Shown here: piece after piece, positions 4,989 through 14,728 of the stretch
Layout of the letters: each line of letters opens with the position of its first letter
Position numbering within the stretch: position 1 is the stretch's first letter
Source of the DNA: an uncultured Eubacteriales bacterium
GTDB lineage: Bacteria > Bacillota > Clostridia > Oscillospirales > UMGS1783
Length of the DNA stretch: 14,728 nt
Assembly (NCBI GenBank): GCA_905209135.1
Contig: CAJLRT010000009.1
Coordinates: 1 to 14,728 of the forward strand
Direction of reading: 5' to 3'
Made by a program: the position numbers and the translations under genes
Notes under the pieces: generated by a model
What the model was told of the DNA's origin: nothing
Database searches by the model: none
Seen by the model: only the letters and a program-made list of their open reading frames with translations

Positions 4989-5017
4989 ATTATATCCGCT
5001 TTAGAAAATAATGTCAA
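4989..5017 (-). promoter_or_regulatory. Perfect-consensus promoter of the epimerase gene
   Basis: On the minus strand, TTGACA (5012-5017) is followed by a 17-bp spacer and TATAAT (4989-4994). Both hexamers and the spacing match the sigma-70/sigma-A consensus exactly. The predicted start is near 4982, about 15 nt upstream of the start codon. Confidence 0.85.
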
Positions 5018-5099: not shown

Positions 5100-5924
5100 T
5101 TGACCGGCGCTATATCCGATTTTGAAAAGCACCTATGGGGTGAGGAAAAATGCAAGTCGACGGTGGACAAATACGTCCGAGACGCAGGCGCTTTCTGTAT
5201 GGCGCTGCACAACCGTCCCCTGACAAAAGAATTCGTTATAAAGTACAAAGCGGCGCTTTGCGAAAAATTCAAGCCCGCCGGCGTAAACAGCAGGCTGGTC
5301 GCTATCAACCGATTTTTGCAGTTTACAGGCAGGCAGGACTGCTGCGTAAAACTTTTAAAAATTCAGCGCCAGATGTTTGCCAACGAAAAGCGCGAACTGA
5401 CGGCCGCGGAATACAAAAGGCTGGTAAACGCCGCCGGGAACAGCCGCATTTCCTTTGTTTTGCAGACCATCTGCGGCACGGGCATTCGCGTTAGCGAGCT
5501 GCAGTATATTACGGCAGAAGCCGTAGCGGATGGGCGCGCCGTGGTAAGCTGCAAAAACAAAACCCGGATTATTTTCATACCGGTACAGCTCCAGCGCATT
5601 TTAAAAAATTATATAAAAAAAGCCGGCATCAAATCCGGCTGCGTATTCGTTACAAACGGCGGGAAACCGCTGAACAGGTCCAATATATGGCGCGAGATGA
5701 AAATGCTGTGCAGAAAAGCGCACGTGAACCCGGACAAGGTGTTTCCGCACAACCTGCGCCATCTGTTTGCAAGGACGTTTTACCAGCTTGAAAAAGACAT
5801 TGTACGGCTGGCCGACCTGCTTGGGCACAGCAACGTGGAAACCACGAGAATTTACACCATTGAGACGGGCGTCAGACACCGTGAAGGCCTGAATGCAGTT
5901 GGTCAAATCCTGTTTACAACATAA
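5100..5924 (+). CDS. Tyrosine recombinase, likely the invertase of the adjacent segment
   Basis: This 274-residue tyrosine site-specific recombinase (XerC/D / phage-integrase family) has an N-terminal SAM-like core-binding domain (about residues 4-85) and a C-terminal catalytic domain (about 98-270). The catalytic set looks complete: Arg130 (GTGIRVSEL), Lys152 or Lys154 in the beta-hairpin (CKNKTR), His217 and Arg220 (HNLRH), His243 (LGHSNVETT) and the nucleophile Tyr252 (RIYT). The start is TTG, with GGAGG at 5086-5090 placed 9 nt upstream. The TAA stop (5922-5924) lies inside the left 22-bp inverted repeat of the invertible segment. It is small and lacks an arm-binding domain, typical of simple Xer-like invertases. 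No excisionase or phage genes are nearby. Proximity makes it the likely enzyme for the switch; that is inference. Confidence 0.92.
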   Translation: MTGAISDFEKHLWGEEKCKSTVDKYVRDAGAFCMALHNRPLTKEFVIKYKAALCEKFKPAGVNSRLVAINRFLQFTGRQDCCVKLLKIQRQMFANEKRELTAAEYKRLVNAAGNSRISFVLQTICGTGIRVSELQYITAEAVADGRAVVSCKNKTRIIFIPVQLQRILKNYIKKAGIKSGCVFVTNGGKPLNRSNIWREMKMLCRKAHVNPDKVFPHNLRHLFARTFYQLEKDIVRLADLLGHSNVETTRIYTIETGVRHREGLNAVGQILFTT

Positions 5925-5936
5925 TATGAATTATGT
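5915..5936 (+). repeat. Left inverted repeat / recombination site
   Basis: TACA followed by ACATAATATGAATTATGT. It is identical to the reverse complement of 6199-6220 over all 22 bp; identity stops at 5914 and 5937. Inside it, ACATAAT and ATTATGT form 7-bp inverted half-sites around a 4-bp asymmetric centre (ATGA), the layout expected of a core site bound by two recombinase protomers. It overlaps the recombinase stop codon. Confidence 0.85.
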
Positions 5937-5975
5937 CGTACTTCAAATTCTTACCCACTACATAATGACAGGTTT

Positions 5976-6004
5976 ATTATATCATCTTTATTATAGCGTG
6001 GCAA
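5976..6004 (-). promoter_or_regulatory. Promoter inside the invertible segment, facing left
   Basis: On the minus strand, TTGCCA (5999-6004) is followed by a 17-bp spacer and TATAAT (5976-5981). The spacer ends in TGA, giving an extended -10 (TGATATAAT). There is one mismatch to consensus in total. The predicted start is near 5968, so in this orientation the RNA runs out through the left repeat and antisense into the 3' end of the recombinase gene. It is the strongest promoter I find in the segment. Confidence 0.78.
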
Positions 6005-6056
6005 TAGGGGATTCCCCTTTTCTGCGATAAAAACTTTGTTCATGAATACAAAATAA

Positions 6057-6121
6057 GGCATAACAAATCCGGCCGACAGTGATTCTGCATTCTCGGCTGA
6101 GTTTGTTATGCCTGCTTTTTT
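6057..6121 (+). terminator. Intrinsic terminator inside the invertible segment
   Basis: GGCATAACAAA (6057-6067) pairs perfectly with TTTGTTATGCC (6102-6112). An inner GCCGA/TCGGC (6072-6076 / 6093-6097) extends it to a stem of about 20 bp with one true mismatch. TTTTTT follows at 6116-6121. On the plus strand it would stop read-through from the recombinase gene into the surface gene. The opposite side reads TTATTTTG after the stem, so weak bidirectional activity is possible. Confidence 0.85.
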
Positions 6122-6156
6122 GCCCGCGGGAAGCGCTATGGCAGGGCCAATTCGCC

Positions 6157-6196
6157 TATGATTGCGACTGGATATTGGAATTTGGTCGCAATCATA
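6157..6196. repeat. 12-bp perfect inverted repeat next to the right recombination site
   Basis: TATGATTGCGAC (6157-6168) and GTCGCAATCATA (6185-6196) are separated by 16 nt and end 2 bp before the right 22-bp repeat. No T-tract follows on either side, so it is not an ordinary terminator. It could be an accessory-protein site for recombination, or an RNA hairpin. In the inverted state it would lie next to the left repeat. Confidence 0.6.
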
Positions 6197-6198
6197 TC

Positions 6199-6220
6199 AC
6201 ATAATTCATATTATGTTGTA
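6199..6220 (-). repeat. Right inverted repeat / recombination site
   Basis: ACATAATTCATATTATGT followed by TGTA. It is the exact reverse complement of 5915-5936. It ends 35 bp upstream of the surface gene's Shine-Dalgarno sequence. Confidence 0.85.
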
Positions 6221-6268
6221 TTTCATATTCCGTCCCATAAAAGCAATTGAATTGCAGGAGGAATATGG

Positions 6269-7648
6269 ATGATGAAAAAACGGTTATTCAGCATGATGGT
6301 CTGTCTCATACTGACGCTCATGATCTTGCCGATGACGGTATCTGCAAAAGGTCAGCAGGGCGCAGGCGGACTCAGCGAACAGTATTACAACTCGGCCCAG
6401 TCTTTCGGCTATGACGCCTTGACTTCCGGCGGGCAGAACAACGGCGAACTCGACGGGCTCGCTTCCGTTTCCGTCGGCACGGCGAACCTGACGAGAAACA
6501 GCGCGGCCTCCACTACCGGAGCCGCCGTTGCAAACGGCGTGACCATCGGCTTTCAGGAGGGCTACTACCTGGACAGCTACAAAATTGTCTGCGGCGACAA
6601 GTATGGCTGCCGGACGGACGCGAGCGGCAAGGCCGTAAGCAAAAGCAATGTAATGTCCGGCGCGACGACTGCATCCATCACACTCGGCGAAAGCGACGGC
6701 ATTACAAAAGCCGCGTTCGGACACAGCAGCCAAAAGGCTCCCTATTGGCTCCTTCTCAAGCTTGCGGCGGATTCGACGCTGTACAGCGTGACCTATAACT
6801 GGGGCGAGCTTGCGGACGACCTGACGGCGGCTCTCCCCGAAACGAAGTCGTACAAAGTCAACGCCATCGTCACCGTCGCCTCCCCCGGCGCGAGCGCGCT
6901 TTCCGAAGCGGCTACGATCGGTGAAAACGGCTATCAGTTCCTCGGCTGGCAGCTTGATCTGGACAGCGAAACACACCAGGCCAACGACACTTTCGGCATG
7001 CCGCGCAAAAACGTCGTTCTGACAGCGCTGTGGAAAAAGATTGCCGCCACTGAAGTGCATTACACCATCAACGTTCCCATCGTTAAAACGGTCGTGCAGG
7101 ACGGCAGCGCCGCGCCCGGTGCGCAGACTTTCCAGTTTGCGATGATTGAAAGCGACACGCCGGCTGAATTTGAAATACTGAACGATACTATCGAGACCAC
7201 CGGCGCAGGGACTTTCGAGGGGGTTTATTCCATCCGCGTTTCCGAAGAGACATTCCGGAACCTCTCCGAGGGCTTTGCCATTGCCGAAGTAAACGGTGAA
7301 GCGGCGGACTGGACCTATGATGAGACCGTGTGGGGCGTTGTTCCCTACATGGACAATTCCGGCGAAATCAGCGTCCGGTTCGCAAACCTGAGCGCCGAGG
7401 AGGAACTCTGGGGCAAAACTGAATACGAATATACCGCCGCTGAGTTCACAAACACTTATCGCGCGAATACCGCTGCGGAGGAACCGGAGCAGCCGGAAGC
7501 GCCGAAGCCGGAAGCGCCGAAGCCCGATTCCCAAAACCCGAGCACCGGAGACAGCTTCCAGCCCTGGTTGCTTGCCCTCCTGTTGCTTGCCAGCGGCACT
7601 GCGGCGGCCAGCGCTTTGCTTCGGAGAAAACACTCTCCGGGCAAATAA
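6269..7648 (+). CDS. Sortase-anchored (NPSTG) surface protein, adhesin/pilin-like
   Basis: This 459-residue secreted, cell-wall-anchored protein begins with a signal peptide (MMKKRLF, a hydrophobic core at about 7-22, likely cleaved after VSA at 26). Residues 27-190 form a region I do not recognise. Residues 194-257 resemble an InlB/Listeria-Bacteroides repeat (GYQFLGW ... TFGMPRKNVVLTALW). Residues 264-397 resemble a Spy0128/FctA-type pilin domain, with Lys273 (PIVKTV) and Asn395 (EFTNTY) placed like an intramolecular isopeptide pair. A Pro/Glu stalk (403-422) leads to the sorting signal NPSTGD (423-428), a membrane segment (432-451) and a basic tail (RRKHSPGK). AGGAGG at 6256-6261 lies 7 nt before the chosen ATG; a second in-frame ATG at 6272 is also possible. 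No sortase gene is in the window. Expression probably depends on the upstream switch. Confidence 0.88.
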   Translation: MMKKRLFSMMVCLILTLMILPMTVSAKGQQGAGGLSEQYYNSAQSFGYDALTSGGQNNGELDGLASVSVGTANLTRNSAASTTGAAVANGVTIGFQEGYYLDSYKIVCGDKYGCRTDASGKAVSKSNVMSGATTASITLGESDGITKAAFGHSSQKAPYWLLLKLAADSTLYSVTYNWGELADDLTAALPETKSYKVNAIVTVASPGASALSEAATIGENGYQFLGWQLDLDSETHQANDTFGMPRKNVVLTALWKKIAATEVHYTINVPIVKTVVQDGSAAPGAQTFQFAMIESDTPAEFEILNDTIETTGAGTFEGVYSIRVSEETFRNLSEGFAIAEVNGEAADWTYDETVWGVVPYMDNSGEISVRFANLSAEEELWGKTEYEYTAAEFTNTYRANTAAEEPEQPEAPKPEAPKPDSQNPSTGDSFQPWLLALLLLASGTAAASALLRRKHSPGK

Positions 7649-7676
7649 TTGCCTTGCTTGAATCTCCCCTTTATAA

Positions 7677-7712
7677 ACTGCCGGTGATGTTGACCCCATC
7701 ACCGGCGGTTTT
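7677..7712 (+). terminator. Terminator of the surface protein gene
   Basis: GCCGGTGATG (7680-7689) pairs with CATCACCGGC (7697-7706), extended outward by three further pairs including a wobble. GGTTTT follows. It closes the phase-variation module 28 bp after the stop codon. Confidence 0.85.
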
Positions 7713-7862
7713 ATCTGTACGGAAAATGCGCGGCGGCGCGGGGCGGGCGCGGGCCGGAGCGGAGTGCGCAGCGCGGCGTGGTACGGCGGAGAAATACGCG
7801 GCTTGGTGCGCTGCGGGCACGGGCAGGAGCGGGGGCGGAAAGGGCGCCGGGTCGGCCGGCTA
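7713..7862. other. GC-rich intergenic stretch without a recognisable gene
   Basis: This spacer is very G/C-rich, with strong G bias on the plus strand. Open frames exist on both strands but are low-complexity, lack Shine-Dalgarno sites and resemble nothing I know. It may be a decayed remnant or a junction between the AT-richer surface-protein module and the van cluster. I see no repeat or RNA gene in it. Confidence 0.5.
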
Positions 7863-7891
7863 TTGACTTTTGAGAGCGTTCGGCGTATACT
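7863..7891 (+). promoter_or_regulatory. Promoter of vanRS
   Basis: TTGACT (7863-7868), a 17-bp spacer and TATACT (7886-7891): one mismatch in each hexamer. The start would be near 7898, giving a leader of about 125 nt that is GC-rich and foldable. I found no copy of the repeats seen upstream of vanG near this promoter, so expression may be constitutive. Confidence 0.75.
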
Positions 7892-8023
7892 GCAACAATG
7901 AAAGGCGGCTTGTCCCGCACAGCGGCCGGTTTGCAGCGCAAAGCGCCGCCGGGTTTCGCGGCGGGGACGGCTGAACGCGTATGCACAGTGAACGGAGCAT
8001 TCCCTGCTGAGAGGTGAACTTTG

Positions 8024-8719
8024 TTGAGCGCCAACATATTGATTCTGGACGACGAACGGCCAATTGCCGATCTCATTGAACTATACCTGAAAAATGAAAA
8101 CTACAACGTATACAAGTTTCACACCGCCAGGCAGGCGCTCGCATGCGTGGCGGACACGCCGTTCGACCTTGCGATTCTGGACGTTATGCTCCCCGACGAG
8201 GACGGCTTTTCCGTGTGCCGGAAAATACGGGAGGAGCACTACTTCCCTGTAATCATGCTGACGGCAAAGGTGGAGGACATGGACAAGATCATGGGCCTGA
8301 CTCTCGGCGCGGACGACTATGTCACAAAGCCTTTCAATCCGCTGGAGCTTGTCGCGCGGGTCAAAACGCAGCTGCGGAGATATACGAAATACAACCAGGG
8401 CGACAAGGCGGACGAGACTGTGACGGAGTATGACTTCTCCGGGCTTGTCATCAACAGCGAAACGCACAAGTGCACCCTGTACGGCAAACCGCTCGCCCTG
8501 ACCCCCATTGAGTTTTCCATACTCTGGCACCTGTGCCAGAACAGGGGCAAAGTCGTCTCCTCCGAAGAGCTGTTTGAAGCGGTATGGGGCGAAAAATACC
8601 TGGACAACAACAACACCGTAATGGCGCACGTGGCCCGGCTGCGGGACAAAATGCACGAGCCGTCCCGCAGGCCGAAATTTGTAAAGACTGTGTGGGGAGT
8701 GGGGTATACGATTGAATAA
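8024..8719 (+). CDS. vanR: VanR-type response regulator (OmpR family)
   Basis: This 231-residue response regulator has a receiver domain at about 1-120: the acidic pocket Asp9/Asp10 (LILDDE), phosphoacceptor Asp53 (AILDVMLP), Thr80 (MLTAK) and Lys102 (TKPF). A winged-helix DNA-binding domain occupies about 135-231, with LTPIEFSILWHLC, NNTVMAHVARLRDKM and the closing KTVWGVGYTIE. Many blocks match enterococcal VanR from memory (ADLIE.YLKNENY, GADDY.TKPF.PLEL, KTVWGVGY). I place the start at TTG 8024, not TTG 8021, because AGAGGTGA (8010-8017) gives normal spacing to 8024. The last 8 nt overlap the start of vanS, indicating translational coupling. When phosphorylated it should activate the vanG operon. 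Confidence 0.92.
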   Translation: MSANILILDDERPIADLIELYLKNENYNVYKFHTARQALACVADTPFDLAILDVMLPDEDGFSVCRKIREEHYFPVIMLTAKVEDMDKIMGLTLGADDYVTKPFNPLELVARVKTQLRRYTKYNQGDKADETVTEYDFSGLVINSETHKCTLYGKPLALTPIEFSILWHLCQNRGKVVSSEELFEAVWGEKYLDNNNTVMAHVARLRDKMHEPSRRPKFVKTVWGVGYTIE

Positions 8720-9824
8720 GCAGGACTGGGCGCGGTCGGGTTCCGACCTCGCGCGCACCGTATTTACCAGGTTTCTTCTCTCGCTTATGCTGTTTACCGG
8801 CGGGTATCTGCTGCTGTTTTTCGGCATGTACTTCTCCCTTTCCTCCATGACCTGGCATGGGGACGAGCTGCTGTACCGGCCGCTGCAGATCCTCTATGAC
8901 AACAGTATCGTCGTGCTGATTCTCGGCTGGATTATCCTTGTGTTCTGCCTCATCATTTACTACTGGCGCAAGAGCCAGCGGTTTGTGGCGACGATCGCAG
9001 CCGCGAGCGACCAGCTCGTCGCCAACGACGACCAGTTCATCCGCCTGCCAAAGGAGCTCAAGGACATAGAAAACCGGATGAACCGCGTTAAACAGGACGC
9101 AATGCGCAACGCCCGCCTCGCCCGAGAGGCCGAACAGCGGAAAAACGACCTGATCGTCTACCTCGCGCACGACCTCAAGACGCCGCTGACTTCGGTGATC
9201 GGATACCTGACCCTGCTGCGGGACGAGCCGCAGATTTCCGAACAGCTGCGCGAAAAATACCTCGGCATCTCCCTGGATAAGGCCGAACGGCTGGAAGAGC
9301 TTATCAATGAATTCTTTGAGATTACGCGGTTCAATCTCAGCAGGCTGACGCTCGAGCCGAGCCGGGTGGACCTCTCGCGCATGCTGGAACAGATCTGCTA
9401 CGAGTTTCGGCCCCTGTTCGACCAGAAACAGCTTCGCTATACGCTGCGCATGGAGCCGGGCATTGAAATACGCTGCGACGTGGCCAAGATGGAACGGGTT
9501 TTCGACAACCTCATCCGCAACGCCGTGAGCTACAGCTATGAGGGCGGGGAAATCTCCGTCGGCGCCGTGCGGACAGACGAGGGCGTATACATCCAGTTTA
9601 TCAACGACGGCGACACCATACCCGAAGAAAAGCTCAGGCGCATTTTCGAGCAGTTCTACCGGCTGGACACATCCCGTTCCACCAAGACGGGCGGCGCAGG
9701 GCTGGGGCTCGCCATTGCGAAGGAGATAGTGGAGCTGCACGGCGGCACTATTACCGCCACGAGCGCCAACGACGCGGTGGCCTTTACCATATTCCTGCCC
9801 AGCGAGCCTGTCAGAAAATCGTAA
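8712..9824 (+). CDS. vanS: VanS-type sensor histidine kinase
   Basis: This 370-residue membrane histidine kinase has two transmembrane segments, at about 20-42 and 65-85. They bracket a very short external loop of about 22 residues, so it lacks a large sensor domain, as in VanS proteins. A HAMP-like linker follows. The H-box is LAHDLKTPLTSVIGYL (151-166) with His153 as phosphorylation site. The ATPase boxes are N (DNLIRNAVSYS, 265-275), G1 (INDGD, 297-301), F (FEQFYRLD, 312-319) and G2 (GGAGLGLAI, 327-335). The start is TTG, overlapping vanR by 8 nt, with GTGGGG about 7 nt upstream. It should phosphorylate and dephosphorylate VanR in response to a cell-wall or glycopeptide signal. The inducer cannot be read from the sequence. 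Confidence 0.92.
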   Translation: MNKQDWARSGSDLARTVFTRFLLSLMLFTGGYLLLFFGMYFSLSSMTWHGDELLYRPLQILYDNSIVVLILGWIILVFCLIIYYWRKSQRFVATIAAASDQLVANDDQFIRLPKELKDIENRMNRVKQDAMRNARLAREAEQRKNDLIVYLAHDLKTPLTSVIGYLTLLRDEPQISEQLREKYLGISLDKAERLEELINEFFEITRFNLSRLTLEPSRVDLSRMLEQICYEFRPLFDQKQLRYTLRMEPGIEIRCDVAKMERVFDNLIRNAVSYSYEGGEISVGAVRTDEGVYIQFINDGDTIPEEKLRRIFEQFYRLDTSRSTKTGGAGLGLAIAKEIVELHGGTITATSANDAVAFTIFLPSEPVRKS

Positions 9825-9841
9825 GAATTCCGAAAGAAAAT
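9808..9841 (+). promoter_or_regulatory. Three 11-bp phased repeats, candidate VanR-binding site
   Basis: CTGTCAGAAAA (9808-9818), TCGTAAGAATT (9819-9829) and CCGAAAGAAAA (9830-9840) are contiguous direct repeats with an 11-bp period sharing G at position 3 and AGAA at 6-9. This is the layout used by OmpR-family regulators. The middle repeat resembles the enterococcal VanR half-site as I remember it (TCGTANGAAANT). The array overlaps the last codons of vanS. A weak -10-like TTGAAT lies at 9858-9863, 16 bp past the array. Confidence 0.45.
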
Positions 9842-9875
9842 AAACAGGCTTCTGCATTTGAATCCTGAAAAACAG

Positions 9876-9918
9876 AACTTCCTGCTCTGGTACCATAGAG
9901 CAGGAAGTTTTTATTTTT
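9876..9918 (+). terminator. Strong terminator/attenuator between vanS and vanG
   Basis: AACTTCCTGCTCT (9876-9888) and AGAGCAGGAAGTT (9897-9909) form a perfect 13-bp stem with an 8-nt loop, followed by TTTATTTTT. On the other side AAAAACAG gives TTTTT on the minus strand, so it could work both ways. It ends only 9 nt before the vanG Shine-Dalgarno (9928-9933), leaving no space for a promoter after it. Transcripts entering vanG must therefore cross it. Confidence 0.85.
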
Positions 9919-9939
9919 AAAATACCTGGGAGGAAATAT

Positions 9940-10995
9940 ATGGACAGACCGAAAATCGCCGTCCTGTTCGGGGGACGTTCGAGCGAGTACGACATTTCGC
10001 TCCAGTCGGCTTTCTCCGTGATCGGGCACATAGACGCGCAGCGGTACGAGCCGGTACTGATCGGGATTACGAAAGAGGGGGACTGGTTCCGCTATTACGG
10101 CGACCGCGCGGACATCCTGAACGACCGGTGGCGGCAGTCCGGCCGCTGCGTGCCCGCCGCCTTTGCGCAGAACTATCATGCAAAGGCGCTGCTGGAGTTC
10201 CCGGAGCACGGCGGCGTGCAGTGCACGCGCATAGACGCGGTCTTTCCCGTTCTGCACGGCAAGAACGGCGAAGACGGAACGGTGCAGGGGCTGTTCGAGC
10301 TCGCGGGGGTACCGGTGATCGGCTGCGGCACGCTCGCTTCGGCGCTGTGCATGGACAAGGACCGCGCGCACAGGCTGGCGGCGCTGGCCGGCGTGGACAC
10401 GCCCGCCGCGGCCGTTTTCTCCGCACGGGTCACGCCCGGCGAGCTGATGCGGGAAACCGCCGCGCTCGCCTGCCCGCTGTTTGTCAAGCCCGTGCGGGCC
10501 GGGTCGTCGTTCGGGATTACGAAAGTGGACGACCGCGGGGAGCTTTGGGAAGCGGTGCGGGCCGCATTTGAGCACGACGACCGGGTCATCGTCGAGCAGG
10601 GGGTGCCCGGGTTCGAGGTGGGCTGCGCCGTGATCGGAAACGAAGACCAGCTCACCGTGGGCGCTGTGGATGAGATTGAACTTTCCGACGGGTTCTTCGA
10701 CTTTGATGAAAAGTACACGCTCAAAAGCTCCAAAATCCACATGCCGGCGCGCATAGACGATGAGACCGCCGCGCGCATATGCAGCGCGGCGGAGACGGTC
10801 TACCGGGCGCTCGGCTGTTCCGGGTTTGCGCGCGTGGACATGTTTCTGACGCCCGAGGGGCGGGTCGTATTCAACGAGGTAAACACCATTCCGGGCTTTA
10901 CTGCGCACAGCCGGTTTCCCAATATGATGCGCGGTGTTGGCATGACGTTTGCAGAGCTTATTGACACGCTGATCCGTACGGGGCTGCGCAGATGA
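9940..10995 (+). CDS. vanG: VanG-type D-alanine--D-serine ligase
   Basis: This 351-residue ATP-grasp ligase joins D-Ala to D-Ser for an altered peptidoglycan precursor of low vancomycin affinity. The N-terminal motif is VLFGGRSSEYDISLQSA (8-24). HGKNGEDGT (106-114), PLFVKPVRAGSSFGITKV (179-196) and NEVNTIPGFTAHSRFP (312-327) are family hallmarks of nucleotide and substrate binding. The omega-loop motif EKYT (257-260) marks the D-Ala-D-Ser group (VanC/E/G), and long blocks such as ALCMDKDRAH and EKYTLKSSKI match VanG as I recall it. GGGAGG at 9928-9933 lies 6 nt before the ATG. It is the first gene of vanG-vanXY-vanT. The ATGA overlap with vanXY implies translational coupling. Confidence 0.93.
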   Translation: MDRPKIAVLFGGRSSEYDISLQSAFSVIGHIDAQRYEPVLIGITKEGDWFRYYGDRADILNDRWRQSGRCVPAAFAQNYHAKALLEFPEHGGVQCTRIDAVFPVLHGKNGEDGTVQGLFELAGVPVIGCGTLASALCMDKDRAHRLAALAGVDTPAAAVFSARVTPGELMRETAALACPLFVKPVRAGSSFGITKVDDRGELWEAVRAAFEHDDRVIVEQGVPGFEVGCAVIGNEDQLTVGAVDEIELSDGFFDFDEKYTLKSSKIHMPARIDDETAARICSAAETVYRALGCSGFARVDMFLTPEGRVVFNEVNTIPGFTAHSRFPNMMRGVGMTFAELIDTLIRTGLRR

Positions 10996-11750
10996 GGGCG
11001 CGCACGGCATACGCGCCGCGCATGCACGCCGGCGGGCTGGTGCTGGTGAGCGCGGCGCACCCGATTGCACAGACGGAAACGGGGCCGCCGCGCGTGCCCG
11101 TGACCATCGGCGGGCGGACGGCCGAACTGGAGGCGCGCACGGCGAATCTTCTGCTGCGGCTGTTCGGCGACATCCGGAGCGGGGACGAGATTGTGCCTGC
11201 GGACGGATACCGGAGCGCGGCCGAACAGCGGCGGCTGTACGACGCGGCCAGGGCCGAGCACGGCGAGGCTTTCGCCCGCGCATTCGTCGCCCCGCCCGGC
11301 GGCAGCGAGCACCAGACGGGGCTTGCCGTCGACCTGGCGCAGAACGCCGCGCAGATCGACCCGATCCGGCCGCTGTTCCCCAATACGGGCGCGTGCGGGC
11401 GGTTTCGCCGGCTGGCGGCGGAGTACGGGTTCATTGAGCGGTATCCCGCGGGCAAGGAACATGTGACGGGCATTGCCCACGAGCCCTGGCATTTCCGGTA
11501 TGTGGGGCATCCGCACGCGCGGATCATGGCGGAATACGGTCTGTGCCTGGAGGAGTATATCGGGCTGCTGCGGCAGTACCGGCACGACGGCGAGCACCTA
11601 TGGTTTTCCGAAAAGCCGCGGCGGTTCGAGATTTATTTTGTGCCGGAAGAGCAGTTCGGCCCCGATACGGCGCCGGCGTGCGGGTGCTATCAGGTTTCGG
11701 GCAACAATGTGGACGGGTTTATTGTAACAGTCTGGAGGGAATACGTATGA
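10992..11750 (+). CDS. vanXY: VanXY-type D,D-peptidase/carboxypeptidase
   Basis: This 252-residue zinc peptidase of the VanY/VanXY (M15B) family has no signal peptide or membrane segment. That fits the cytoplasmic VanXY type, which cleaves D-Ala-D-Ala and removes the terminal D-Ala from precursors. Motifs are the substrate-binding Arg in GYRS (72-75), the zinc motif SEHQTGLAVD (105-114; His107, Asp114), and EPWHFRY (164-170; catalytic Glu164, zinc ligand His167). The C-terminal 70 residues hold the extension seen in D,D-carboxypeptidases. Whether it has both activities or only the carboxypeptidase activity cannot be decided by eye. It is joined to its neighbours by 4-nt ATGA overlaps on both sides. 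Confidence 0.88.
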   Translation: MRARTAYAPRMHAGGLVLVSAAHPIAQTETGPPRVPVTIGGRTAELEARTANLLLRLFGDIRSGDEIVPADGYRSAAEQRRLYDAARAEHGEAFARAFVAPPGGSEHQTGLAVDLAQNAAQIDPIRPLFPNTGACGRFRRLAAEYGFIERYPAGKEHVTGIAHEPWHFRYVGHPHARIMAEYGLCLEEYIGLLRQYRHDGEHLWFSEKPRRFEIYFVPEEQFGPDTAPACGCYQVSGNNVDGFIVTVWREYV

Positions 11751-12934
11751 TCCGCACCTTTGCAGGCCGCACCTTTGCAGGCCGCACCCTCGCGGGCCGC
11801 ACCTTTGCAGGCCGCACCTTTGCAGGCCGCGCCTGGACGGAAGTGGACCTGTCGGCTCTCCGGCACAACGCGCGGGCGCTCGCGGGCCTGGCGCCGCAGG
11901 GCGTCAGGATCATGGCGGTGGTCAAGGCCGACGCGTACGGGCACGGGGATGTGCGCGTGGCGCAGACCCTGTACCGCTGCGGCGTGCGCGACTTCGCCGT
12001 CGCCACCCTGGAGGAGGGAATCCGCCTGCGCCGGCACATGGCGCGCGGGCGCATCCTTGTGCTGGGGTATACTGATCCGCGCGAAGCCGCGGCCCTTTGG
12101 CGGTGGAGGCTGGCGCAGACCGCTGTGGACGCCGCGCACGCGCAGGCGCTAGATGCGCAGAAAAAACGGCTGCACGTACACCTGGCCCTGGACACCGGAA
12201 TGCACCGGCTGGGGACGGACGCGATGGACGGCGCGGCCCTCGACGCGCTCTGCAGCCTCAAATGGCTGCGAGTGGACGGCGTGTTCACCCACCTGTGCGT
12301 CGCCGATGAGCTGACGGAGCAGGCGCGCGCGTTCACAGCCGCGCAGGCGGCCAGGTTCCGCGCGGCGGTCGAAATGCTGCGGGAGCGCGGGCTGCACGGC
12401 TTTCAGACGCACGCGCAGGCCACCTACGGACTGATGAACTACCCGGAGTTCAGCGGCGACGTTGCGCGCGTCGGCATCGGCTTATACGGCGTGCTGAGCC
12501 AGCAGGGACAAACGCGGACGCAGGCCGATCTGCAGCCGGCGCTGGCGCTGCGGGCGCGGGTGGCGCAGGTACGGCGCGTTGCGGCGGGCGAAAGCGTGGG
12601 CTACGGCAGGGCGTATACCGCCCGCACCGATATGGCGGCGGCCGTGGTGACGGCCGGTTATGCGGACGGGATTCCGCGCAGCCTGTCCGGCTCCGGCGCG
12701 CATGTGCTCATACACGGCCAGCGCGCGCCGGTGATCGGGCGCATCTGCATGGATCAGCTTCTGGCGGACGTGAGCGGGATTGTAGGCGTGAAGCAGGGCG
12801 ACGTCGTCACGCTCATCGGCCGGGACGGTTCGGCCGAAATACGCTGCGAGGACTTCGCAGGCTGGTGCGGCACCATTTCCAATGAAATTCTGTGCAGGCT
12901 GGGCGGGCGGCTGGGACGCATATATCTGCCGTAA
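11747..12934 (+). CDS. vanT: VanT-position serine/alanine racemase without membrane domain
   Basis: This 395-residue fold-type III PLP racemase has the PLP lysine Lys60 in VVKADAYGHG (58-67), RVGIGLYG (241-248), the catalytic tyrosine Tyr286 in VGYGRAYTA, GYADGIPRS (304-312) and RICMDQ (332-337). By position it is the VanT of the cluster and would supply D-Ser to VanG. Classical VanT proteins are about 700 residues with an N-terminal multi-span membrane domain. Here that domain is absent, and the racemase domain is preceded by five RTFAG repeats (residues 3-27). D-Ala supply, meaning a plain alanine racemase, is an alternative. The start overlaps vanXY (ATGA), with GGAGGG at 11733-11738. A hairpin follows the stop codon. 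Confidence 0.85.
   Translation: MIRTFAGRTFAGRTLAGRTFAGRTFAGRAWTEVDLSALRHNARALAGLAPQGVRIMAVVKADAYGHGDVRVAQTLYRCGVRDFAVATLEEGIRLRRHMARGRILVLGYTDPREAAALWRWRLAQTAVDAAHAQALDAQKKRLHVHLALDTGMHRLGTDAMDGAALDALCSLKWLRVDGVFTHLCVADELTEQARAFTAAQAARFRAAVEMLRERGLHGFQTHAQATYGLMNYPEFSGDVARVGIGLYGVLSQQGQTRTQADLQPALALRARVAQVRRVAAGESVGYGRAYTARTDMAAAVVTAGYADGIPRSLSGSGAHVLIHGQRAPVIGRICMDQLLADVSGIVGVKQGDVVTLIGRDGSAEIRCEDFAGWCGTISNEILCRLGGRLGRIYLP
11753..11827 (+). repeat. In-frame 15-bp tandem repeat (5 copies, RTFAG) at the start of vanT
   Basis: The unit CGCACCTTTGCAGGC occurs five times in direct succession. Copies 1, 2, 4 and 5 are identical. Copy 3 differs at 3 positions (CTC and GCG codons, giving RTLAG). 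Because the unit is a multiple of three, copy-number change would alter protein length but not the frame. Confidence 0.97.

Positions 12935-12979: not shown

Positions 12980-14728
<1,749 letters not shown>

What the first reader, a model, noticed from the sequence alone, without database searches (positions are those of the whole stretch)
5100..7712. Self-contained phase-variation module: recombinase, invertible promoter, sortase-anchored surface protein
A complete tyrosine recombinase is followed by a 306-bp segment with perfect 22-bp inverted repeats, and then by a secreted, NPSTG-anchored pilin/adhesin-like gene. All parts needed for ON/OFF switching of one surface protein sit side by side, and the module is AT-richer than its flanks. 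The parts are seen directly; comparison with C. difficile switches (cwpV, flagellar switch) is family knowledge; that this recombinase flips this segment is inference.
Basis: partly seen in the sequence, partly recalled or inferred. Interest (0 to 1): 0.93.

Follow-up and report, generated by a model that had tools for sequence, protein, structure and literature searches.

The report
Flip switch with its own recombinase
A bacterial recombinase gene ends inside a 306-base segment with perfect inverted repeats and an outward promoter-like site, likely a flip switch that turns a predicted wall-anchored surface protein on or off, and in the likely off position shown here it is predicted to make a short antisense RNA against its own recombinase.

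Summary
A 274-aa Xer-like tyrosine recombinase (5100-5924) ends inside one arm of a perfect 22-bp inverted repeat. The 306-bp segment (5915-6220) holds one strong sigma-70-like promoter pointing away from the surface gene (predicted OFF) and a two-way terminator-like hairpin. A predicted secreted NPSTG protein follows (6269-7648).

I read 176 loci of this recombinase family. Of 152 testable, 136 have such repeats directly after the gene (2 of 456 shuffles). Both promoter directions occur (62 OFF, 22 ON of 135), homologous segments are reversed in 11 of 64 pairs, and the half-site follows recombinase clade. The switch reading is well supported; inversion in this strain is untested. Similar Clostridia switches are published (PMC11892184).

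The new part: many recombinase genes carry an intrinsic terminator on their antisense strand at one conserved place (64 of 171 at -12 kcal/mol or better; 22.6 expected; 1 on the sense strand), with covarying stems in one clade. The OFF promoter would thus make a finite antisense RNA (about 356 nt here). I propose that OFF represses its own recombinase. In this window that terminator is only moderate (-9.8 kcal/mol). The RNA and its effect are inference.

The parts
5100..5924 (+). Xer-like tyrosine recombinase, 274 aa, TTG start; predicted to invert the neighbouring segment
   Evidence: ORF; PF00589 E 6.5e-24; aligned to the Xer-type chain 4a8e over residues 5-260 and to XerA 5hxy over 5-254
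5915..6220 (.). predicted invertible segment, 306 bp
   Evidence: family-wide repeat test
5915..5936 (+). left inverted repeat; contains the recombinase stop codon and the core ACATAATATGAATTATGT (5919-5936)
   Evidence: core
6199..6220 (-). right inverted repeat, perfect reverse complement of the left
5976..6004 (-). promoter-like site TTGCCA-17-TATAAT with extended -10, pointing left, away from the surface gene (predicted OFF)
   Evidence: 11 of 12 matches; family pattern
6050..6119 (.). terminator-like hairpin behind the promoter, with T-run on the right and A-run on the left; predicted to block read-through from recombinase to surface gene in either orientation
   Evidence: I1; 6040-6128 folds at -36.5 kcal/mol, z -6.5 on + and -30.2, z -3.7 on -
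6157..6196 (.). 12-bp dyad with 16-nt centre (TATGATTGCGAC), role unknown
6269..7648 (+). predicted secreted, NPSTG sortase-type surface protein, 459 aa, InlB-B-repeat-like domain
   Evidence: two hits among 7999 scored candidates, one 99% identical (near copy) and one 64%
7675..7711 (+). terminator-like hairpin after the surface gene, before the van-like cluster
   Evidence: I4; -26.7 kcal/mol, z -5.7 for 7660-7725
5612..5640 (-). antisense intrinsic-terminator-like hairpin inside the recombinase coding sequence (stem 5640-5621, then T-run)
   Evidence: -9.8 kcal/mol; the wider fold has z only -1.24; place enriched in the family
5613..5969 (-). predicted antisense RNA of the OFF orientation, about 356 nt, covering the 3' third of the recombinase gene
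   Evidence: length computed from promoter and terminator positions; no RNA data

Best explanation
The recombinase gene and the 306-bp inverted-repeat segment that its 3' end overlaps likely form a cis-acting ON/OFF switch in which the recombinase would flip the segment and so turn its single strong promoter-like site toward or away from the surface-protein gene. In the window the promoter points left, so the surface gene is predicted OFF; after a flip transcription would start near 6166 and read into the gene at 6269. The hairpin in the middle of the segment would keep recombinase read-through out of the surface gene in both orientations. The central part of the core sites is asymmetric, so two inverted copies would give inversion rather than deletion. 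In the OFF orientation the promoter would read antisense into the recombinase and stop at an intrinsic terminator inside that gene, which would lower recombinase output and make OFF the more stable state. Shown by sequence or calls: repeats, promoter-like site, hairpins, family conservation, both orientations in the family. Inferred: flipping here, promoter activity, antisense RNA and repression.
For: Perfect repeats. 136 of 152 testable loci (window included) have repeats directly after the recombinase, against 2 of 456 shuffles and 3 of 142, 2 of 138 and 2 of 137 at three places further downstream. The core ACAnAA-n6-TTnTGT is in 126 of 135 repeat loci against 63 of 1350 shuffled arms; the spacer is never palindromic (0 of 126) and the central 10 bases are identical in both arms in 121 of 126; the fourth base follows the recombinase clade (T in 83 of 90 loci outside clade A, 2 of 34 inside, 2 unassigned; p 1.6e-20). 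Of 135 segments, 62 have one clear promoter toward the recombinase and 22 away; the -10 box is 21-63 bp from the near arm in 82 of these 84. Homologous segments are reversed against a collinear recombinase in 11 of 64 aligned pairs, three with the downstream flank collinear too (L172/L180, L222/L223, L181/L201); promoter calls agree with this in 8 of 8 reversed and 29 of 30 same-strand pairs in which both were called. Assembly contigs end within 250 bp downstream of the gene in 21 of 174 loci, upstream in 6 (p 0.006). Antisense terminators. Published reads show flipping in Clostridia inverton group 139 tied to a tyrosine recombinase group (PMC11892184).
Against: No reads or second genome of this species were available, so inversion here is unseen. 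16 of 152 family loci show no such repeat, and 49 of 135 segments have no promoter that passes my scan. The antisense terminator of the window is modest: its wider fold is matched by 23 of 200 shuffles. Antisense terminators are as frequent in loci where I found no repeat (7 of 16) as in those with one (51 of 133), and in the most diverged set the excess is small (5 of 49 against 1.4, maximum 4). Two of five XerD control frames hold a strong antisense hairpin elsewhere in the open frame (-19.3 and -12.4). The surface protein's anchor motif is below the Pfam cut-off.
Confidence: 0.9

Rival explanations
1. The switch works as a plain promoter inverter; the antisense hairpins in the recombinase genes only insulate the recombinase promoter and upstream genes from OFF-state transcription and do not regulate the recombinase.
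For: An intrinsic terminator by itself shows only that antisense transcription is likely stopped there. Promoter and flip parts are conserved regardless.
Against: Strong antisense terminators sit mostly at one place, 240-330 nt before the gene's end (62 of the 80 genes that have one anywhere), so the RNA would cover about the last third of the gene; insulation alone could be placed outside the coding sequence. The OFF excess of 62 to 22 fits a stabilised OFF state, though selection could give the same.
Confidence: 0.4
2. The hairpins in the recombinase genes act on the sense strand: an A-rich stretch followed by a stem could be a programmed frameshift signal that limits full-length recombinase.
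For: On the sense strand an A-run precedes a stem.
Against: In 80 genes with a hairpin of -14 or better, chosen without any T criterion, T is at 0.69-0.76 already 2-5 nt after the antisense stem, so the run abuts the stem as in a terminator (the 5-9 nt spacing of frameshift sites is recalled). Only 12 of 82 genes have an in-frame -1 slippery heptamer within 15 nt. The 0-2 nt gap counted is built into its search and is not evidence.
Confidence: 0.05
3. The repeats are a relic: the segment is fixed and the recombinase acts elsewhere in the genome.
For: Only one orientation is available for this species; the whole genome is not held.
Against: The arms are perfect over 22 bp, relatives at 48-66% recombinase identity keep arms of 19 bp or more, and core and recombinase clade covary.
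Confidence: 0.05
4. The switch is of the cwpV kind: the promoter lies outside and the flip makes or breaks a terminator in the leader.
For: There is a strong hairpin inside the segment.
Against: The hairpin is flanked by a T-run in both directions and would stop rightward transcription either way; a strong outward promoter-like site lies inside the segment, as in much of the family (84 of 135).
Confidence: 0.04

Closest known systems
E. coli fimE-fimS-fimA switch (type 1 fimbriae)
   Same: Tyrosine recombinase gene beside a 314-bp inverted-repeat element that carries the promoter of a surface-structure gene; switch orientation also controls the neighbouring recombinase (fimE) through a detachable Rho-dependent terminator (PMC9993118 and PMC2784873, passages read).
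   Different: One recombinase beside the segment here; 22-bp repeats (short 9-bp fim repeats are recalled); here a two-way intrinsic hairpin sits inside the segment, and the predicted feedback is an antisense RNA with an intrinsic terminator embedded in the recombinase gene, not a Rho-dependent terminator in the switch.
Clostridia inverton group 139 / invertase group 35 (PMC11892184)
   Same: Tyrosine recombinases near short invertible segments in Clostridia; orientation shifts seen in reads for Clostridium sp. D5 and Intestinimonas butyriciproducens (passages and section 8). The two segments whose coordinates are given span 257 and 255 bp, like this family.
   Different: The group's repeat motif is not in the main text, so identity with the ACATAAT core could not be checked. 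Word counts of that main text: 'antisense' 0, 'terminator' 1.
C. difficile switches (cwpV, flagellar, pdcB)
   Same: Xer-type tyrosine recombinase RecV for cwpV and flagellar switches, about 20-bp repeats; pdcB has an invertible promoter (PMC9286219, passages).
   Different: cwpV promoter lies outside the switch and recV is not near cwpV (PMC2784873). PMC9286219 raises antisense RNA in the OFF state, but between two promoters of the target, not against the recombinase.

Membership tests
Invertible-promoter phase-variation switch (fimS kind) | short segment bounded by inverted repeats | tested here: met
   22-bp perfect arms; 136 of 152 family loci
Invertible-promoter phase-variation switch (fimS kind) | promoter inside the segment directed outward | tested here: met
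   11 of 12 match plus extended -10; clear one-strand promoters in 84 of 135 family segments; activity untested
Invertible-promoter phase-variation switch (fimS kind) | adjacent site-specific recombinase | tested here: met
Invertible-promoter phase-variation switch (fimS kind) | both orientations occur | tested here: inconclusive
   both occur in the family; not seen for this species
Invertible-promoter phase-variation switch (fimS kind) | expression of the target follows orientation | not testable with these tools
   no RNA data
C. difficile cwpV-type switch | promoter outside the inverted segment | tested here: not met
   strong outward promoter-like site inside the segment
C. difficile cwpV-type switch | recombinase encoded away from the switch | tested here: not met
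   recombinase overlaps the left arm
Inverton group 139 / invertase group 35 (PMC11892184) | repeat sequence belongs to the group 139 motif | not testable with these tools
   motif not in the main text; 'ACATAAT' occurs 0 times there
Inverton group 139 / invertase group 35 (PMC11892184) | tyrosine recombinase within 5 kb of the segment | tested here: met
   it overlaps
XerC/XerD/XerA equivalogs | score over the curated NCBIfam cut-off | tested here: not met
   XerA 126 against 220, XerD 105 against 329.6, XerC 94.4 against 335.15 bits: Xer-like, not a housekeeping Xer
Tyrosine recombinase superfamily | catalytic R, HxxR, H/W and Y positions | tested here: met
   GIRVSEL, HNLRH, LGHSN and RIYT align with the two Xer chains shown; the names of the catalytic residues are recalled
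LPXTG sortase substrates | anchor motif, hydrophobic stretch and basic tail | tested here: inconclusive
   NPSTG, hydrophobic run and RRKH are visible; Gram_pos_anchor 16.9 bits is below its cut-off of 20

The most novel reading that the evidence does not exclude
A large family of self-contained flip switches silences its own recombinase from the OFF position: the same promoter that drives the target when ON makes, when OFF, a finite antisense RNA of about 355 nt over the 3' third of the recombinase mRNA, ended by an intrinsic terminator written into the recombinase coding sequence on the opposite strand. The orientation thus sets its own flip rate (OFF is held, ON decays).
Probability: 0.5. 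Interest if true: 0.8.

Novelty: new variant of a known kind. Interest (0 to 1): 0.62.

Why it matters
Invertible promoters are well known, but how a lone recombinase gets different ON and OFF dwell times is less clear. Here a whole family may carry the feedback in its own sequence: the recombinase gene codes for a protein on one strand and, in many members, for a transcription terminator on the other. The site motif and the antisense terminator also give sequence-only marks for finding such switches and for reading their state in a single assembled genome.

Tried and rejected
Own genome not held. Species not identified: best HisB identity was 67% among 394 genomes of the order of G001, and a 391-genome draw of its class at E 1e-84 found nothing, so no close relative with the reversed segment could be compared. 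The viral-contig scan, which reaches close relatives only, confirmed none; plasmid records gave one record with a short hit outside the recombinase (query bases 26-86). Rfam found nothing at gathering score in the window. The cwpV model and a frameshift signal were considered and set aside (see rivals). A conserved distal dyad was tested: 13 of 84 segments have one of 9 bp or more (0.8 expected), but most differ in sequence and place. The hairpin census of segments (65 of 84 with a hairpin) had no shuffle control, so it is descriptive. On re-check I withdrew one argument: the 0-2 nt gap between stem and T-run counted follows from the search rule; one search repeats the test without that rule, and over the whole gene. 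The search for the same idea in print: (open-access library only). In those listings, and in the passages I read of seven papers (PMC5903667, PMC11892184, PMC8777976, PMC9286219, PMC2845655, PMC9993118, PMC2784873), I saw no antisense terminator inside such a recombinase gene. Of these I read passages, and one section of PMC11892184; none whole.

Rows dropped: 24 of 176 loci had no stop codon or under 450 bp downstream; partial matches at contig ends G128:C36, G297:C15 and G203:C13 were not fetched; L235 duplicates L218 and was left out (edge count; gene tests) but not. Gene tests used 171 of 176 loci (complete enough, no N). The XerD control used 5 of 13 fetched loci, those that the script's motif picked. 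Family members weaker than E 1e-60 (1e-30) were not sampled, and one search scored at most six candidates per genome.
Full report
What is there. The recombinase is a tyrosine recombinase (PF00589, E 6.5e-24), nearest to XerA/XerD models but far below their cut-offs, and it aligns with two Xer-type chains of known structure along nearly its whole length. Its stop codon lies inside the left repeat, so flipping would not alter the protein. Inside the segment a consensus scan finds a minus-strand promoter-like site, TTGCCA-17-TATAAT with an extended -10, at 6004-5976, which points away from the surface gene; a weaker plus-strand match (10 of 12) lies at 5965-5994, 204 bp from the right arm. A long hairpin at 6050-6119 folds at -36.5 kcal/mol (z -6.5) on the plus strand and at -30.2 (z -3.7) on the minus strand (stretch 6040-6128). 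The gene at 6269-7648 starts like a secreted protein and ends with NPSTG, a hydrophobic stretch and a basic tail; the anchor model is below cut-off and the only Pfam domain over cut-off is of InlB-B-repeat type. Two hits were found among 7999 scored candidates: a near copy (99%) and one relative at 64%.

Family test. The recombinase has relatives in 109 of 394 genomes of one order at E up to 1e-60, 28 of the 109 with more than one (at most six candidates per genome were scored), and in 22 of 87 genomes of one family that overlaps that order. I read 176 loci, the window included, of which 152 had a stop codon and at least 450 bp downstream. In 136 of 152 an inverted repeat of score 14 or more begins within -60 to +150 bp of the stop codon, against 2 of 456 shuffles and 3 of 142, 2 of 138 and 2 of 137 at 1.0, 1.8 and 2.6 kb further downstream. 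The arms share a core, ACAnAA-n6-TTnTGT (126 of 135 repeat loci; 63 of 1350 shuffled arms). The fourth base is T in 83 of 90 loci outside one recombinase clade (clade A, set by a protein signature at residues near 195) and in 2 of 34 inside it (Fisher p 1.6e-20). The central bases are never palindromic (0 of 126) and the central ten are the same in both arms in 121 of 126. The sequences are related by descent, so the p value overstates independence; the link between recombinase type and site is nevertheless plain.

Evidence for flipping. Of 135 segments scanned, 62 have a clear promoter toward the recombinase, 22 toward the target, 2 are ambiguous and 49 have none by my thresholds; the -10 box lies 21-63 bp from the arm it faces in 82 of the 84 (exceptions at 118 and 121 bp). 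At the stricter threshold 48 and 19 were found where shuffles give 1.1 on one strand. Among genes below 70% identity the tally is 33 to 16, below 60% 18 to 8. Of 64 pairs whose segments align over 60 bp or more, 11 have the segment reversed while the recombinase side is forward; in three of these the downstream side is forward too (L172/L180, L222/L223, L181/L201). Where both promoters were called, they are opposite in 8 of 8 reversed pairs and alike in 29 of 30 same-strand pairs (exception L147/L206, a 64-base alignment). Several reversed pairs are paralogues within one genome. Contigs end within 250 bp downstream of the gene in 21 of 174 loci and within 250 bp upstream in 6 (p 0.006), as expected if assemblers stumble over mixed orientations. 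One relative, L002, has a run of N inside its segment. Published reads show orientation shifts of Clostridia inverton group 139, linked to a group of tyrosine recombinases (PMC11892184; passages and section 8); I could not test that these are the same sites.

Targets. The same cassette sits before many kinds of genes. In a Pfam scan of the first 330 residues of 132 putative targets, the window's included (picked as the longest downstream ORF, so some picks will be wrong), the commonest families were DUF4379 (12), type IV pilin-like N_methyl (8), Band_7_1 (7), signal peptidase (6), Band_7 (6), BspA leucine-rich repeats (5) and CpsB/CapC (4).

Antisense terminators. Since the OFF promoter faces the recombinase gene, I looked for terminators on that strand. 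They cluster at recombinase residues 165-190: 39 of 171 genes, against a mean of 13.9 (highest of 20 rounds 21) when synonymous codons are shuffled within alignment columns, and 6 on the sense strand. Scored by energy over residues 150-200, 64 of 171 reach -12 kcal/mol against a mean of 22.6 (highest of 12 rounds 28) and 1 on the sense strand; the strongest is -28.0. Over the whole gene, 80 of 171 have an antisense terminator of -12 or better, 62 of them 240-330 nt before the gene's end, against 6 of 171 on the sense strand; and in 80 genes with a hairpin of -14 or better picked without any T criterion, T makes up 0.46-0.76 of each of the eleven positions after the stem, while A makes up 0.09-0.47 of the mirrored positions before it. 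With genes below 70% identity the count at -12 is 35 of 109 against 11.0 (highest of 20 rounds 15); below 60%, 5 of 49 against 1.4 (highest 4). In clade A (44 non-redundant genes, 43 distinct) a 14-bp stem is paired in 85.4% of cells against 37-50% when partners are slid; 8 pairs change on both sides, and 29 cells do so against 8.2 in shuffles. Other members, such as L116 and L112, form the hairpin in a different register of the protein, which suggests repeated origin. Five XerD genes from the same genomes have nothing of -6 or better in the 240 nt before the LRH motif, against 98 of 143 family genes; two of the five frames have a strong antisense hairpin elsewhere. Only 12 of 82 genes have a slippery heptamer in frame. 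In 29 loci with an OFF promoter and a terminator the predicted antisense RNA has a median length of 355 nt (333-491), 356 in the window; that search was confined to 200-420 nt before the gene's end, so the range is partly set by it.

Limits of that claim. The window's own hairpin is moderate (-9.8 kcal/mol), and the fold of its surroundings is matched by 23 of 200 shuffles. Strong antisense terminators are as frequent in loci without a detected repeat (7 of 16) as with one (51 of 133). Column shuffles do not remove shared ancestry. No RNA data were available. The excess of OFF assemblies (62 to 22) fits an OFF-stabilising feedback but also plain selection.

Mechanism and precedent. My reading is a fim-like cis switch. 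In fim, orientation also controls the recombinase gene next door, through a Rho-dependent terminator that follows fimE only in OFF cells (PMC2784873 and PMC9993118, passages). Here the same logic would be reached by a different means: an OFF-state antisense RNA with an intrinsic terminator embedded in the coding sequence. The switch itself is a new member of a known kind; the embedded antisense terminator makes it, in my view, a new variant.

Noticed in passing
window 8021-12934: A vanG-type cluster follows: VanR, VanS, VanG-type ligase and VanT catalytic-domain models pass their cut-offs; VanXY-G is below its cut-off (217.9 against 500). It is separated from the surface gene by a terminator-like hairpin (7675-7711) and has a promoter-like site at 7863-7891.
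   Followed up: partly
window 11752-11834: 5.5 copies of a 15-bp tandem repeat near the start of the alanine/serine racemase gene (TFAGR-like peptide repeat).
   Followed up: no
window 12980-14548: Collagen-like Gly-Pro-Thr repeat protein on the minus strand (PF01391) in long tandem DNA repeats.
   Followed up: no
window 4989-5017: Perfect consensus promoter TTGACA-17-TATAAT on the minus strand before the epimerase gene, just upstream of the recombinase.
   Followed up: no
window 6157-6196: A 12-bp dyad near the right arm; could be an accessory protein site or a second hairpin. Not generally conserved in place or sequence.
   Followed up: partly
L166, L167, L168, L181, L196, L201 (alike N-termini): A repeated target class of these switches is a DUF4379 zinc-finger protein (12 of 132 targets; which loci match is judged by eye), not an obvious surface protein.
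   Followed up: no
L103, L107, L112, L113, L114, L116, L140 (alike N-termini): Proteins of one type, probably the SPFH/Band 7 class (Band_7_1 in 7 of 132 targets), lie downstream of several switches.
   Followed up: no
L002 and L007: In two Clostridium genomes the picked ORF after the switch looks like a PRD/CAT antiterminator (2 of 132 targets match PRD and CAT_RBD) beside PTS-like ORFs (by eye), so sugar uptake may be switched.
   Followed up: no
G343 contig C1: One genome with a 4.0-Mb contig carries six copies of the recombinase at E up to 1e-60, so several switches with their own recombinases can coexist.
   Followed up: no
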